A stretch of 64,000 bases of DNA, from the NCBI RefSeq assembly GCF_014235875.1, contig NZ_JACJUK010000002.1, positions 1 through 64,000 of the forward strand, given 5' to 3'. The position numbers were made by a program, and so were the translations under genes. The notes under the pieces are model-generated. The model had not been told where the DNA came from. It did no database searches and saw only the letters and a program-made list of their open reading frames with translations. Positions 21,944 through 30,729 of this stretch are shown here, in pieces (position 1 is the first letter of the stretch; the number at the start of each line of letters is the position of its first letter). This stretch comes from Croceivirga lutea. Lineage in GTDB: Bacteria > Bacteroidota > Bacteroidia > Flavobacteriales > Flavobacteriaceae.

Positions 21944-23209
21944 ATGCGCATCAATCTCATAATTCTCGGACTTGTATTCTTTTCGCTTGTAAATTTTAAG
22001 CTACAGGCACAACACAAAGCCATGTCTTACAACATTAGATATAGCACTTCTAATGATGGTGAAAATGCGTGGGATAATAGAAAAGAAGCCGTGGTGGCAC
22101 TCATTAAAAATTATGAACCAGATTTTCTAGGAATTCAAGAAGGATTACTATCTCAAGTAGCTTACCTCAACAAAAATTTAGCTGACTATGCATATACCGG
22201 GGTGGGTAGAGATGACGGAAAAGAAAAAGGAGAATTCTCGGCAATATTCTACAATGGTAAGGCATTTAAACTTATAACAGGTGAAACTTTTTGGTTGTCA
22301 ACAACCCCAGAAAAAATATCTGTTGGTTGGGATGCCGCCATGGAACGCATCTGTACGTACGCACTTTTTGAACATTTAACTACGGGTGAAAAAATATATG
22401 TATTTAATGCCCATTTTGACCATATTGGTGAGCAGGCAAGAAAAAATTCGGCATTACTCATTGAACAAAAACTACAACAACTACAAATTCTGACGGAACC
22501 TGTAATTGTAATGGGCGATTTTAATAGCGAACCTAATAGCCCTCCAATTCAAACATTTACTAGCTATTTAGATGACGGTGTAGCCATCTCAGAAAAATCG
22601 TTATACGGACCAAAAGGCACATTTAACGGCTTTGATGAAAACCTAATTCCACAAAACAGAATTGACTACATATTCTGTAAAAATTTAAAAAGTGTTCAGA
22701 AATACCGTCATATAAACGACAAAAGAAATAATGGCTTATGCCCCTCTGACCACTTACCTATTTACATGGAATTTACACTGAATAAAAAAATTACGGGTTA
22801 TGATGTATCTTTAAGTGAAACCAAAAATCAATCAATTATGCAATTGGGTAACTTTTCTATTAGTCTAGCGGTTAAAGACATCAAAGCTTCGAAGGCATTT
22901 TATGAAAAACTGGGATTCACTGAGTTTGGTGGAGACATTGCTCAAAACTGGTTAATACTACAAAACGATACCTGTACTATTGGGTTGTTTCAAGGCATGT
23001 TTGATAAAAACACGTTAACCTTTAATCCAGGATGGGACAATAACGCAAATAACCTAAAAGAATTTACAGATATTAGGCAACTAAAAGAGCAATTAGAGGC
23101 TGAAAACATCACCATACTATCAGACGGAATCAAAGGCGAAAAAGGCCCCGGAAACTTAGTGCTCATGGATCCAGATGGTAATCCTATTTTAATAGACCAG
23201 CATCGTTAA
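21944..23209 (+). CDS. exported endonuclease/exonuclease/phosphatase-family protein fused to a VOC domain
   Basis: A protein of 421 residues with a signal peptide (1-23). Residues 25-280 form an EEP domain: N30 in SYNIRY, E66 in GIQEG, H157 and D159 in NAHFDH, D192/N194 in GDFNSE, D241 in RIDYIF and the final D269/H270 in SDHLP. All the usual catalytic positions are present, so it is likely an active phosphodiesterase or phosphatase. After a 20-residue linker, residues 300-421 are a complete glyoxalase/VOC domain (SLAVKDIKASKAFYEKLGF ... DPDGNPILIDQ). No stop separates them. An internal ATG at 22838 (residue 299) could start the VOC part alone. This EEP-VOC combination is not one I know as standard. 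Confidence 0.8.
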   Translation: MRINLIILGLVFFSLVNFKLQAQHKAMSYNIRYSTSNDGENAWDNRKEAVVALIKNYEPDFLGIQEGLLSQVAYLNKNLADYAYTGVGRDDGKEKGEFSAIFYNGKAFKLITGETFWLSTTPEKISVGWDAAMERICTYALFEHLTTGEKIYVFNAHFDHIGEQARKNSALLIEQKLQQLQILTEPVIVMGDFNSEPNSPPIQTFTSYLDDGVAISEKSLYGPKGTFNGFDENLIPQNRIDYIFCKNLKSVQKYRHINDKRNNGLCPSDHLPIYMEFTLNKKITGYDVSLSETKNQSIMQLGNFSISLAVKDIKASKAFYEKLGFTEFGGDIAQNWLILQNDTCTIGLFQGMFDKNTLTFNPGWDNNANNLKEFTDIRQLKEQLEAENITILSDGIKGEKGPGNLVLMDPDGNPILIDQHR

Positions 23210-24748: not shown

Positions 24749-25492
24749 TTACTCTTCGTTATCGTCTTCAAATTTAGTTTCCGCAGTACCTTCTTGAGGC
24801 GCCATAAAATCTAAAGGAATATATTTTAAGTCTTTAATATCAACATCTAAAGCAACTAATTGCTGCTGTGATAATTGGTGTAGACCTCTTAAATCATTAA
24901 AATTATTATTTGCCAAATACAATTTATTTAGCTTTTTTAAATTCTCCATCCCTGATGGCATGCCTCCTGTAAAATTGTTATCTGCTAAAACAAGGCTGTT
25001 TAAATTACGCAACTCAATTATCGATTTTGGTAATTCACCTTCGAAAGCATTTTTTCCTAAATCTAGATAGGCCAAGCTCTCTAAACGGTTTACGGTTAAC
25101 GGCAAAGAACCTTTAAACATATTAGCGCTTAAATCTAAATACTTTAGATTTTCAAACTTTCTAAGTTCTCTTGGCATTCTACCCGTTAGTTCATTCTCTG
25201 ATAAATCTAGATATTCTAAATTTCTGAGATTACCAACCGTAAGTGGCAAATTACCTTTAAGATTGTTGTCTGCTAAATCTAAGGCAACTACTTTACCATC
25301 TTTTACTTTGACACCATACCATGTTGAAATGGGTTGGTCCAAATCCCAAGGGTGGGTCCATTCGTGGCCATTAGTTCGAGCATGTAATTCTAATAAAGCA
25401 ATTTCTTCTCGTTTACTTACTTCTTGAGCAAAAGTGGAAAAAGCGAAGGGTAAGATTAGCAGGGGAACTAAAAGTACTTTTTTAATCTTCAT
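24749..25492 (-). CDS. secreted leucine-rich repeat protein
   Basis: ATG 25492 starts a signal peptide (MKIKKVLLVPLLILPFAFSTFAQ); the mature part is about 225 residues. A plant-receptor-like LRR N-terminal cap (RTNGHEWTHPWDLDQPISTWYGV, here split for length) is followed by six LRR units of 24 residues with the plant-type pattern LxxLxLxxNxLxGxLP, for example LEYLDLSENELTGRMP. The tail is acidic. Plant-type LRR proteins of Bacteroidetes are surface or periplasmic binding proteins; the ligand is unknown. It is on the same strand as the two repeat proteins upstream, but more than 200 bases away and separated by a terminator, so it is probably independent. Confidence 0.8.
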   Translation of the reverse strand: MKIKKVLLVPLLILPFAFSTFAQEVSKREEIALLELHARTNGHEWTHPWDLDQPISTWYGVKVKDGKVVALDLADNNLKGNLPLTVGNLRNLEYLDLSENELTGRMPRELRKFENLKYLDLSANMFKGSLPLTVNRLESLAYLDLGKNAFEGELPKSIIELRNLNSLVLADNNFTGGMPSGMENLKKLNKLYLANNNFNDLRGLHQLSQQQLVALDVDIKDLKYIPLDFMAPQEGTAETKFEDDNEE

Positions 25493-25646
25493 AATTATAG
25501 TGTGTTTGGGAACTGATTGAGACATTAAAAAAAATCAATTCGGTTAAATGTAACAAAAAATAGATGTGAACCACGCTTAACCAGAAGTGTGAACCCAAGA
25601 TTTTGTTGTCTTTTCGACGAACTGCACAATCGTTCTTACACCAAAC

Positions 25647-25678
25647 TATAAAACCCTGAAAAATCTCAGGGTTTTATA
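25647..25678 (-). terminator. rho-independent terminator
   Basis: The 13-bp stem TATAAAACCCTGA / TCAGGGTTTTATA (25647-25659, 25666-25678), 23 bases below the small repeat-protein gene on the minus strand, has a six-base loop. On the minus strand the arm ends in a T-rich stretch. Confidence 0.8.
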
Positions 25679-25701
25679 GGCCTATTTCATAAAGAGAATT
25701 C

Positions 25702-25998
25702 TTACTCGTAAGCATTAAAATTCTCTGGCAAATACTTTTTAGTATCAATAGTCAGCTCTTCTTCGATTTCTATAAAATCAATGGAGTGAATATTTGATGC
25801 CGCAGCATATGGGTCAAAATCTGCAGGCAAATAACTTTTGGTGTCAAAACCTAAGTTTATTTCCTCAGAAACCTCAACAAACTCAATAGCAGATACATCT
25901 ACTTTTGAGTTGCTTTTTTCTGTTTTAGTTTTTGCACCCACTAATGGCATTAATAATAACGCTACAAATAAGGTACTTAAGTACATTTTGTACTTCAT
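25702..25998 (-). CDS. small secreted protein with FDPY/IHSIDFIEIE repeats
   Basis: The frame is open to 26091, but ATG 25998 starts a signal peptide (MKYKMYLSTLFVALLLMPLVGA), giving 98 residues. The mature protein is almost only repeat: a half-unit (AIEFVEVSEEI), then one unit LGFDTKSYLPADFDPYAAAS + NIHSIDFIEIEEE, then a shortened second unit (IDTKKYLPENFNAYE). It is a smaller paralogue of the gene at 26351. I do not recognise the family. The composition (acidic, aromatic, Pro, Asn/Asp) suggests a beta-rich surface protein with Asp/Glu-ladder cation sites, which is inference. Confidence 0.65.
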   Translation of the reverse strand: MKYKMYLSTLFVALLLMPLVGAKTKTEKSNSKVDVSAIEFVEVSEEINLGFDTKSYLPADFDPYAAASNIHSIDFIEIEEELTIDTKKYLPENFNAYE

Positions 25999-26280
25999 AA
26001 TATTGCTTTTAAAATTGCACATGTATAACCCTATTACGATGATTTTCGTATGTGTAGATGAGTATGTAAGTAATTCTAAAACCCCAGTCATTCATAATTA
26101 TTTTAACATACCTTAGAAACATTGCTACTCTGTTAATCTACTTAGTCACTTTGTTGCACATTTAACAACAAAATGATTGAAATTTTATCAGTTACACTTT
26201 ATCGAAAAAATAGGTTAAGTTTTTGTTAAGCAGCGAAATAGAGCGATTAAGAGGAATAATAACAACGCATACCACATAAA
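25999..26280. other. intergenic region between the two repeat-protein genes
   Basis: This AT-rich gap of about 280 bases contains the upstream region of the small repeat gene (minus strand). No ORF, RNA gene or complete -33/-7 promoter was found by eye. The terminator of the larger repeat gene begins at 26281. Confidence 0.5.
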
Positions 26281-26306
26281 AAAACCCTCGATTTCTCGAG
26301 GGTTTT
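26281..26306 (-). terminator. rho-independent terminator
   Basis: The 11-bp stem AAAACCCTCGA / TCGAGGGTTTT (26281-26291, 26296-26306) with a TTTC loop lies 45 bases after the stop codon of the larger repeat gene, which is transcribed to the left. On the minus strand it is followed by T's. Confidence 0.8.
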
Positions 26307-26350
26307 TACCAACTAACTAACTCAAATTTGATAAAATGAAAACATCCTAC

Positions 26351-27058
26351 CTAGATTGACCTTTTATAAGGGTCAAAGCCTTCTGGAAGATACGGTCTCG
26401 TATCAAATCCTAATTCTATTTCGTCATCCATATCTATAAAGTTTATAGAGTGTATGTCTATTATATTGGTGTAAGGGTCAAAAGAATCATCTAAATACGT
26501 GTCTGTATTTACGTCTAACACTTCTTCTTCCTCAATAATTTCAATGTCATGAATATTGAAGTATGCTTTATGTGGATTAAATCCTTCTGGCAAATAAGGT
26601 TCAGTGTCAAATCCTAAATCCTCATCTTCAATTTCAATAAAGTCTATAGAATGAATATCTGTTGGCGTGGCATACGGGTCAAAACCTGAGGGTAAATAAT
26701 CCGAAGTGTCAAAACCTAACTCAATTTCATTTTCTATCACTGAACTTATATTGGAATCAAAATCAAAAATTGTAGTAGTTTCTTCTTCAGAGGTAGCACT
26801 ATTAGTAACTACAACTTTAGTCTCCACTAATTCTTTTTCTAAGATTTCTGAATTCCAATCCATAAATTGTACAGACTCATTAAAAACGTCTGTTACAATT
26901 GGTCTTGTTTCAGCAGTAACATTTACTACTGTTAGTTCTTCTAAGCTACGGTTTGTTTCAACTTGGGGTTGAATTAAAAAGTCCGTACTTTTTTGTTCTT
27001 CTGCTATGGGTGAACCGCCGATTAAGGTACACGCATAAATAATTAATAACTGTTTCAT
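26351..27058 (-). CDS. secreted protein with four FDPY/IHSIDFIEIE repeats
   Basis: A protein of 235 residues. The N terminus is short and hydrophobic (MKQLLIIYACTLIGG) and could be a short lipoprotein signal (YAC). Residues 20-110 are low in recognisable motifs and Thr/Glu-rich. From about residue 114 the C-terminal half consists of repeats starting at L114, L148, L181 and L216 (spacing 34, 33, 35): LGFDTSDYLPSGFDPY, LGFDTEPYLPEGFNPH, LDVNTDTYLDDSFDPY, LGFDTRPYLPEGFDPY. Each of the first three ends DIHSIDFIEIE or a close variant; the last stops after FDPYKRSI. The family is unknown to me. It and the gene at 25702 are the only genes of this kind in the window. Confidence 0.65.
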   Translation of the reverse strand: MKQLLIIYACTLIGGSPIAEEQKSTDFLIQPQVETNRSLEELTVVNVTAETRPIVTDVFNESVQFMDWNSEILEKELVETKVVVTNSATSEEETTTIFDFDSNISSVIENEIELGFDTSDYLPSGFDPYATPTDIHSIDFIEIEDEDLGFDTEPYLPEGFNPHKAYFNIHDIEIIEEEEVLDVNTDTYLDDSFDPYTNIIDIHSINFIDMDDEIELGFDTRPYLPEGFDPYKRSI

Positions 27059-27313
27059 TTTTGATTGATTTTTTGATTGATGTTATATGCTTATAAGACT
27101 ACACTAAAACCAAAATGTTACATCGAATATTTCATTTTAACAATTTCCTAATACTCCGCTAAGTCAACTATAGCAGGAGCTAACAACTGAAACCAAGTCT
27201 AAAACGCAGGGTTGCCAAAGATTCACCATCAAAAAAAATAGTACACACCTTAGCATGGTTTTAACAGAAAGATTCTTCTTTTTTTTGGTTATTTACAGCA
27301 CTGACAAATTCAA

Positions 27314-30276: not shown

Positions 30277-30729
30277 ATGAAAAAAATAGTAGTTGTATTA
30301 GTGTTGTTGACCACAACCTTAAGTTTTGCGCAAGAGCGCCAACGTGGCGAAAGACCACGTCAAAATCGTTTTGAAGATTTATCCGCGGAGCAAATTGCTA
30401 CGCTTCATACCAAAAAAATGGCGTTAGCTTTAGATTTAACTAACGACCAAGTTAAAAAGGTTCAAAAAATAAATCTTGAAAACGCTGAGCTTCGCAAAGC
30501 ACACATGGCCAAACGAAAGGCGAATAAGGAAAATGCTGATGCTAAAAGGCCAACGGCTGAAGAACGCTACGAGCGCGAAAATGCTCGTCTAGATAGACAG
30601 CTAGCAGTTCAAAAGCAAATGCAAGACATACTTTCTGATGAGCAATACCAGAAATGGAAGAAAATGTCGCATAGAAAGCATAAAAAAGGTAATAAGAGAC
30701 CTAATAGGGATGAAGCAAAAAGAGGGTAG
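30277..30729 (+). CDS. Spy/CpxP-like periplasmic helical protein (DUF4890-type)
   Basis: A protein of 150 residues with signal peptide (to about 19, SFAQ), then a strongly basic, helical mature part with heptad-like leucines: LALDLTNDQVKKVQKINLEN and QKQMQDILSDEQYQKWKK. The 'LTxxQ-x-KVxxI ... LSxEQ' layout is that of small DUF4890/Spy-like proteins that respond to envelope stress or carry a chaperone-like role. Here the C terminus is Lys/Arg/His-rich (HRKHKKGNKRPNRD). Its gene lies 98 bases downstream of the small ORF at 29993 on the same strand and ends at a shared terminator. Function by family resemblance only. Confidence 0.65.
   Translation: MKKIVVVLVLLTTTLSFAQERQRGERPRQNRFEDLSAEQIATLHTKKMALALDLTNDQVKKVQKINLENAELRKAHMAKRKANKENADAKRPTAEERYERENARLDRQLAVQKQMQDILSDEQYQKWKKMSHRKHKKGNKRPNRDEAKRG

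What the first reader, a model, noticed from the sequence alone, without database searches (positions are those of the whole stretch)
25702..27058. Two neighbouring secreted proteins built on an unrecognised 34-residue repeat (FDPY ... IHSIDFIEIE)
Seen: the 235-residue protein has four units starting at L114, L148, L181 and L216 with LGFDTxxYLPxxFDPY, the first three followed by IHSIDFIEIE or a variant; the 98-residue paralogue has two. The unit phase is constant (33-35 residues) while nucleotide sequences differ, which indicates selection on protein sequence rather than recent DNA duplication. Inference: a stacked beta-type repeat, perhaps cation-binding through its Asp/Glu ladder, exported and perhaps assembled outside the cell. 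No family in my memory matches.
Basis: partly seen in the sequence, partly recalled or inferred. Interest (0 to 1): 0.72.

Follow-up and report, generated by a model that had tools for sequence, protein, structure and literature searches.

The report
Exported acidic repeat proteins of flavobacteria
Two neighbouring bacterial genes make exported acidic proteins built from an undescribed 34-residue repeat; the larger one carries the promoter of a stress-type sigma factor, and relatives occur in about a quarter of the genomes checked in the same bacterial family, so an anonymous protein becomes a testable part of a stress circuit.

Summary
In detail: four units at L114, L148, L181 and L216 (235 aa), two in the 98-aa neighbour, spacing 33-35, far above shuffles. 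The proteins are real: relatives in 11 of 11 genus genomes and 108 of 397 family genomes, hits only within that family, dN/dS about 0.1. No Pfam, NCBIfam or PDB family fits. The stacked-beta reading is not supported: AlphaFold2 gives no fold.

New here is the regulation. The long protein has an ECF-sigma-type promoter, TGTAAC-N16-[AC]GTCT (76 of 80 fetched long genes; 19 of 55 repeat genes against 1 of 592 neighbours). It also precedes one widespread ECF sigma gene (21 of 21 loci with a located start, 15 in strict form) and, in this genome, four other genes, among them a MacB-type permease. Short relatives use the housekeeping promoter. A third class sits in repeat-protein/histidine-kinase/LytTR operons with 21-bp-spaced direct repeats; the window genome has no close copy of that kinase.

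Best reading: an exported, probably disordered, acidic multivalent effector of an envelope-stress response. The regulatory link is well supported by sequence; the molecular activity is inferred. An undescribed family in a known type of regulon.

The parts
26351..27058 (-). Long repeat protein (class A), 235 aa: hydrophobic N-terminal segment, about 90 residues without repeat, four units (L114, L148, L181, L216)
   Evidence: relatives
27096..27122 (-). ECF-sigma-type promoter TGTAAC-N16-AGTCT, 37 nt before the start codon
   Evidence: exact pattern hit; conserved in relatives
26280..26308 (-). Probable intrinsic terminator of the long gene (CCCTCGA-GAAA-TCGAGGG followed by a T run)
   Evidence: read directly; not listed by the scan
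25702..25998 (-). Short repeat protein (class B), 98 aa, two units (L49, L82), probably its own transcription unit
26018..26025 (-). Degenerate housekeeping -7 box TACATGTG of the short gene (one mismatch to TAnnTTTG)
   Evidence: read; 38 of 38 fetched short relatives have TAnnTTTG within 75 nt (window gene not among them)
25646..25679 (-). Terminator-like hairpin after the short gene
   Evidence: 1 found, 0.8 expected in shuffles

Best explanation
The long protein is an exported effector of an ECF-sigma envelope-stress response. Shown by computation: a real, constrained, lineage-specific repeat family; a promoter of one fixed form in front of the long gene that is shared with an ECF sigma gene of the same genome (operon: sigma, small protein with one hydrophobic segment, three DUF4252 genes) and with a MacB-type permease and three genes for exported-looking proteins; separate, housekeeping-type control of the short companion. 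Inferred: when the envelope is stressed the sigma factor is released, the long protein is made and exported, and its acidic, mostly unfolded chain works by multivalent contact, each unit offering the motif LGFDTxxYLPxxFDPY followed by a hydrophobic-acidic tail (IxSIxYIEEEE) to a partner or ion in the periplasm or at the surface. The partner is not known. The short paralogue would be a constitutive, low-valency version.
For: Promoter: 76 of 80 fetched long-class genes have TGTAAC-N16-[AC]GTCT 63-66 nt before the start, 0 of 38 short-class genes do; 19 of 55 repeat genes in 41 regions (40 fetched plus the window) against 1 of 592 other genes of at least 120 aa; in a list of 69 repeat genes that includes duplicates and kinase-linked ones, 19 strict and 31 strict or loose. 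Sigma link: 1 of 19 sigma-70 region-2 loci in the own genome has the site, a gene with DUF4252 neighbours; among the 30 best orthologue loci, own included, the 21 whose start was located all have it at 71-79 nt, 15 strict and 6 without the last T; the sigma is in 328 of 378 family genomes. Regulon: 7 exact sites in the own genome against 3 for the reversed control; 6 of 7 lie 37-47 nt before a gene start: sigma, this gene, MacB-type permease, 109-aa exported-looking protein, ankyrin protein, 895-aa protein with a CBM9-like domain. Disorder. Stress (by analogy of operon make-up only): in Porphyromonas gingivalis, sigma, hypothetical and DUF4252 genes (PG_0214-0218, PG_0985-0987) are listed with positive fold changes in two conditions, AN and HPS, which I read as anaerobic and peroxide (PMC10101095, passage), and a PG0985 mutant survives peroxide poorly (PMC9862357, passage).
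Against: No expression data for any member. The sigma is far more widespread (328 of 378) than the repeat family (108 of 397), so the family is at most an optional part of the regulon. The short and the kinase-linked relatives are not under this promoter. Pattern hits in the 11 genus genomes are 96 against 42 for the reversed control, so single sites can be chance; 2 of 11 genus genomes (G001, G002) show no exact site at the long gene. Of 22 sites in 20 fetched regions, 10 precede an ATG frame of at least 100 aa by 42-47 nt, 4 precede a frame of about 37 aa, 1 precedes a transporter-ATPase frame without a clear ATG, 2 lie at contig ends and 5 lie beside the end of a convergent frame. Other sigma genes may have been missed because the first Met was taken as start. 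AlphaFold2 alignments were shallow (51 and 39 close relatives).
Confidence: 0.55

Rival explanations
1. The repeat proteins are signals or signal precursors. In the third class the exported repeat protein, a histidine kinase with about four membrane helices and almost no outside domain, and a LytTR regulator form one apparently autoregulated operon, as in the ComCDE and Agr pheromone systems (recalled); repeat units or peptides cut from them would be the ligand.
For: The first plausible gene before the kinase is a repeat protein in the 13 best kinase loci and in 18 of the 30 fetched, of 34 found (small overlapping frames disregarded in L204, L207, L208); a response-regulator-like frame follows in 28 of 30; 21-bp-period direct repeats lie upstream (mean score 10.69 of 12 at period 21 against 8.0-9.0 at the other periods from 14 to 29, 13 regions), matching the 9-bp repeats with 12-bp spacers of LytTR sites (PMC6193735, passages); hydrophobic segments and short loops in the one kinase examined.
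Against: The window genome has no close copy of this kinase (best match 32%) and the window genes lack the direct repeats (7 of 12, control level). Eight of 30 kinase loci have a putative lipoprotein there instead, one a half-unit acidic protein, three neither. One repeat gene keeps the direct repeats without that kinase beside it (L171), which looks like an output. Whole 34-residue units, not a short peptide, are conserved. The box TTTCAC was taken from the same 13 regions, so only its period is tested.
Confidence: 0.12
2. Accessory feedback protein: the stress-induced repeat protein binds the sensor or anti-sigma side in the periplasm and damps the response that made it, as CpxP does for Cpx (recalled).
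For: Members sit under two unrelated stress-type controls, an ECF-type promoter and a LytTR system.
Against: No common binding site in the two sensors was looked for or found; the short class has neither control; no interaction data.
Confidence: 0.13
3. Stacked beta-type, cation-binding surface repeat.
For: Constant unit length; 53 Asp+Glu against 9 Lys+Arg in 213 residues after the first 22.
Against: No strands and low confidence in AlphaFold2; charge-hydropathy on the disordered side; no sequence hit to any solved structure.
Confidence: 0.1
4. Spurious frame or low-complexity artefact.
For: Acidic bias; several chance-like library hits.
Against: dN/dS about 0.1; homologues in 70 of 237 genera sampled; conserved promoter and leader.
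Confidence: 0.01

Closest known systems
DUF4252-linked ECF-sigma operons of Bacteroidota (PG_0214-0218 and PG_0985-0987 of Porphyromonas gingivalis, passages of PMC10101095 and PMC10434189)
   Same: ECF sigma, a small hypothetical protein and DUF4252 genes together; here the sigma promoter is shared with other genes for exported-looking proteins
   Different: No repeat protein is mentioned in the passages read; equivalence of the sigma factors rests on gene make-up; no mutant or expression data for the flavobacterial one
LytTR two-component systems and ComCDE/Agr-like autoinduction operons
   Same: In the third class: exported repeat protein, PF06580 kinase, LytTR regulator (Pfam-checked in L188), direct repeats with 21-bp period upstream
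   Different: The window genes are not in such an operon; the exported protein is a 126-248 aa repeat protein, not a short peptide; a role as signal is untested
SM6 (sigma-ECF) promoters of Flavobacterium psychrophilum (PMC9723704, passages read)
   Same: [quoted passage not shown] an ECF sigma/anti-sigma pair among the targets
   Different: The full SM6 sequence was not seen or compared; its listed targets include T9SS parts and Band-7 proteins

Membership tests
Known repeat or domain family (Pfam-A, NCBIfam, PDB) | Profile match over the curated cut-off or significant E-value | tested here: not met
   P0001 and P0002: only PF13981 at E 0.25. 21 long relatives: scattered Pfam hits in 1-3 members (best DUF7652, E 0.00012, 1 member) and NCBIfam hits in 1-6 members; of the 6 members with TIGR00295, the one shown in full has 39 bits against a cut-off of 172. 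PDB: none for P0001, best E 0.54 for the profile
ECF-sigma regulon with the DUF4252-linked sigma | Promoter of the same sequence and spacing as the sigma gene's own | tested here: met
   TGTAAC-N16-[AC]GTCT at 27096-27122 and at G000:C11:127239-127265; 76 of 80 fetched long genes; 21 of 21 located sigma orthologues, 15 strict
ECF-sigma regulon with the DUF4252-linked sigma | Transcription depends on that sigma | not testable with these tools
   needs a sigma mutant and RNA data
T9SS substrate | C-terminal sorting domain | tested here: not met
   no NCBIfam match in P0001 or P0002; the array runs to the C-terminus; the genome does carry 21 TIGR04183 matches
Lipoprotein | Lipobox with invariant Cys | tested here: not met
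   the Cys near position 10 is replaced (by Ser, Tyr, Trp, Phe or Leu) in many of the 80 fetched long proteins; judged by eye
LytTR autoregulated operon (third class) | Kinase and LytTR regulator beside the gene | tested here: not met
   window genes: no such neighbours; best kinase match in the genome 32%. A repeat gene precedes the kinase in 18 of 30 loci of other genomes
LytTR autoregulated operon (third class) | Direct repeats with 21-bp period upstream | tested here: not met
   window genes score 7 of 12, as in controls; met in the kinase-linked class
Stacked beta repeat | Regular strands in a confident model | tested here: not met
   shallow alignments

The most novel reading that the evidence does not exclude
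The repeat proteins are a Gram-negative pheromone-like or co-sensing system: in the kinase-linked class the exported repeats (or peptides cut from them) are the ligand of the adjacent multi-helix kinase and drive an autoinducing LytTR loop, and the ECF-driven long class of the window speaks to a receptor of the same kind, tying envelope stress to cell-cell signalling.
Probability: 0.1. Interest if true: 0.8.

Novelty: new variant of a known kind. Interest (0 to 1): 0.52.

Why it matters
A repeat family found in 108 of 397 sampled genomes of its bacterial family has no name, fold or function in the libraries searched. Tying it to one specific, widespread ECF sigma factor, and a sister class to a LytTR operon that looks autoregulated, turns an anonymous protein into a testable part of two signalling circuits, and gives a promoter signature for mapping a stress regulon in a bacterial family that PMC9723704 (abstract seen) calls understudied.

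Tried and rejected
Stacked beta repeat: two AlphaFold2 jobs gave no fold; fold searches were not run because models of such low confidence give meaningless matches. A single-sequence scan of genome contigs found nothing; the profile A3 found 281 relatives among 317 candidate stretches, best 80 kept. Literature: seven peptide strings of the motif occur in no paper of the library; a five-term search for flavobacterial LytTR, kinase and repeat protein found none. Phage and plasmid collections: no match. Fusion to a larger protein: the 575-residue open frame at G221 holds a 170-aa gene. The general sigma-70 promoter scan gave chance numbers. TIGR00295, IglI and SopA hits were judged compositional. 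Neighbours (lysS, DASS transporter, Met-zincin, DUF4890-like protein, glucosaminidase-like protein; lysS and the last are names from recall) recur in many of the 40 regions but look like inherited gene order. The upstream lipoprotein of some kinase operons, which I first took for DUF4136 from memory, has no Pfam match.

Limits: the class and phylum samples hit only same-family genomes (4 and 7 of 395), but how many of the 395 lie outside the family is not shown. One search scored at most 7 candidates a genome, so 108 of 397 is a lower bound. In one search, 9 of 30 sigma loci were dropped because my script did not find the start, and the 30 are the best of 328 genomes. In one search the first Met of the frame was taken as start. 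One search passed over 10 of 30 kinase loci, and the per-locus list also lacks 10 of 30, because the kinase motif searched for differs there (one was checked); one search covers all 30. Loci overlap, so its unit counts are redundant. The 20 regions are my choice among 96 sites.

Full report
1. The observation. Both genes are on the minus strand, 26351-27058 (235 aa) and 25702-25998 (98 aa). Self-alignment scores are far above 200 shuffles, and units agree more in protein than in DNA. Close relatives have a median dN/dS near 0.1 (170 long pairs, 7 short pairs). In 46 long proteins with five recognised units, the unit most like a given one in another species is its counterpart at four of five positions; unit 2 is the exception. 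The array is old and largely ordered.

2. Distribution. Relatives are in 11 of 11 genus genomes and 108 of 397 family genomes (70 of 237 genera). Samples of the class and the phylum gave hits only in same-family genomes (4 of 395 and 7 of 395). A profile scan of named genomes found 281 relatives; the best 80 are titled Croceivirga, Flagellimonas, Muricauda, Allomuricauda, Croceitalea, unnamed Flavobacteriaceae, one Algicola sp. and one Bacteroidia bacterium. In the genus set the closest long relative is 54% identical, in G010; its contig length equals that of a Croceivirga thetidis DJ-13 contig, so the window is from Croceivirga or very near it. No phage or plasmid match. Unit consensus over long and short proteins of the 80 loci: LGFDTxxYLPEGFDPYxxxxDxxSIxYxExE; over kinase-linked relatives: LGFDTaeYLPxxFNAYaGMxDLnDIxYIExEE (lower-case and x for weaker positions). 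Unit spacing peaks at 34-35 residues.

3. No known family. Pfam, NCBIfam and the PDB give nothing credible for the two proteins or for 21 aligned relatives. Seven peptide strings of the motif occur in no paper of the library.

4. Structure. AlphaFold2 on 51 long relatives: mean pLDDT 48.7, pTM 0.19, 130 of 235 residues under 50, no strand of three residues. On 39 short relatives: pLDDT 72.5, pTM 0.24, helix at residues 2-15 and little else. Charge and hydropathy place both on the disordered side, the short one narrowly. The alignments are shallow and close, so this argues against, but does not exclude, a stacked fold.

5. The promoter. Upstream sequences of 22 long genes align with blocks TGTAACA and GTCTTATAAG and a shared leader. 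The strict form TGTAAC-N16-[AC]GTCT is found in 76 of 80 fetched long genes (of the four misses, one differs in a base, one in spacing, and two are second copies without a site) and in 0 of 38 short genes; all 38 short genes have a TAnnTTTG box close to the start, the box that PMC9723704 (passages read) gives for the flavobacterial main sigma factor. The window's own short gene has a one-mismatch version. In 40 regions from other genomes plus the window, 19 of 55 repeat genes and 1 of 592 other genes have the strict site. The window site lies at 27096-27122, 37 nt before the ATG.

6. The sigma factor. Of 19 sigma-70 region-2 loci in the own genome, one has GTAAC-N16-CGTC upstream: a 169-aa ECF sigma followed by a 141-aa protein with one hydrophobic segment and three DUF4252 proteins. 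Relatives at E 1e-20 or better are in 328 of 378 family genomes. In the 30 best loci fetched, my script located the start in 21, and all 21 carry the site at 71-79 nt, 15 in the strict form; whether DUF4252 genes follow in those genomes was not checked. This is the pattern expected for an autoregulated ECF sigma and makes it the best candidate for the long gene. Exact sites number 96 in 11 genus genomes against 42 for the reversed pattern; nine of the 11 have one at the long gene. In the own genome six of seven sites stand 37-47 nt before a gene: the sigma, the long repeat gene, a MacB/FtsX permease, a 109-aa exported-looking protein, an ankyrin protein and an 895-aa protein with a CBM9-like domain; the seventh does not precede a gene start. 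Of all 22 sites in the 20 regions I chose to fetch, 10 precede a frame of at least 100 aa by 42-47 nt (the 109-aa protein in six genomes, the permease in two, and the two other own-genome genes), 4 precede a frame of about 37 aa, 1 a transporter-ATPase frame without clear ATG, 2 are at contig ends and 5 lie beside the end of a convergent frame.

7. What that response may be. In Porphyromonas gingivalis, genes of the same make-up (PG_0214-0218, PG_0985-0987) are listed with raised expression under conditions AN and HPS in one strain's transcriptome (PMC10101095, passage), and a PG0985 mutant survives peroxide poorly (PMC9862357, passage). That the flavobacterial sigma does the same is inference.

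8. A third class. In five of 40 regions the repeat gene is followed by a histidine kinase and a response regulator of shared clusters; in L188 these are PF06580 and LytTR. A search with that kinase found 34 of 397 genomes at E 1e-80 or better. Of the 30 loci fetched, 18 have a repeat protein as first plausible upstream gene, among them the 13 best; 8 have a ~213-aa putative lipoprotein, one has an acidic protein with half units, three have none of these. A response-regulator-like frame follows in 28 of 30. Upstream lie TTCAC-type direct repeats with a 21-bp period: mean score 10.69 of 12 at 21 against 8.0-9.0 at the other periods from 14 to 29 (13 regions, from which the box itself was taken; alignment). 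LytTR sites are 9-bp repeats, mostly with 12-bp spacers (PMC6193735, passages). So this class is probably controlled by its own regulator. One repeat gene shows the triple repeat although that kinase is not next to it (L171). The window's genome has no close copy of the kinase (best 32%), and the window genes have no such repeats.

9. Interpretation. Exported acidic repeat proteins are placed under an ECF-type promoter, under the housekeeping promoter and under a LytTR system. Three different controls on one kind of product suggest that the product is an effector with a common job outside the cytoplasm. A mostly unfolded chain with several copies of one conserved motif fits multivalent binding. 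The partner, and whether ions matter, are unknown. The signal-precursor reading is the boldest that remains; the ComCDE-like gene order of the third class speaks for it, and the many members without the kinase speak against it.

10. Verdict. I file the protein as an undescribed family and a candidate member of a known kind of regulon, not as a member of any named protein family.

Noticed in passing
window 27250-27270: Between the long repeat gene and the divergent Met-zincin gene a block CTGTTAAA...TTAA is conserved in the aligned relatives, in many as a palindrome GTTAAATAATTATTAAC; possible operator of the divergent gene.
   Followed up: no
window 24749-25525: Leucine-rich-repeat protein just downstream of the short repeat gene, same strand; similar gene beside repeat genes in two of the 40 other regions (L155, L167).
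   Followed up: partly
window 21944-23209: Exo_endo_phos domain protein (residues 27-270) with a C-terminal stretch weakly like glyoxalase (306-415, below cut-off): an unusual combination.
   Followed up: no
window 30277-30729: Weakly DUF4890-like (below cut-off), Lys/Arg-rich 150-aa protein whose relatives lie near repeat genes in 29 of 41 regions counted.
   Followed up: partly
L285 (G000:C14:161779) and relatives L294, L295, L296, L300, L303: A 109-aa exported-looking protein keeps the same ECF-type promoter 46-47 nt before its start in six genus genomes; the own-genome copy has no Pfam match.
   Followed up: partly
L288 (two sites), L289, L292: The same promoter form recurs about 42 nt before a frame of about 37 aa beginning MKAS-NRTATES, in three genus genomes, twice in one; a possible small gene.
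   Followed up: partly
L293, L299, L301, L302, L284: A site of the promoter form recurs beside the end of a convergent frame in five genus genomes, with no gene start after it; an unannotated RNA or chance conservation.
   Followed up: no
L158: Three long repeat genes in tandem (two with the promoter in a looser form) in one genome, units ending in FDPHVGDL.
   Followed up: no
contig ends: By eye, in many draft genomes the locus lies 20-35 kb from a contig end, as in the window's own contig, hinting at a conserved nearby assembly breakpoint such as an rRNA operon (inference).
   Followed up: no
L215-L217, L220, L224, L226, L227, L230: The same kinase/regulator pair is preceded by a ~213-aa putative lipoprotein (one tested, no Pfam match) instead of a repeat protein; in L223 both are present.
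   Followed up: partly
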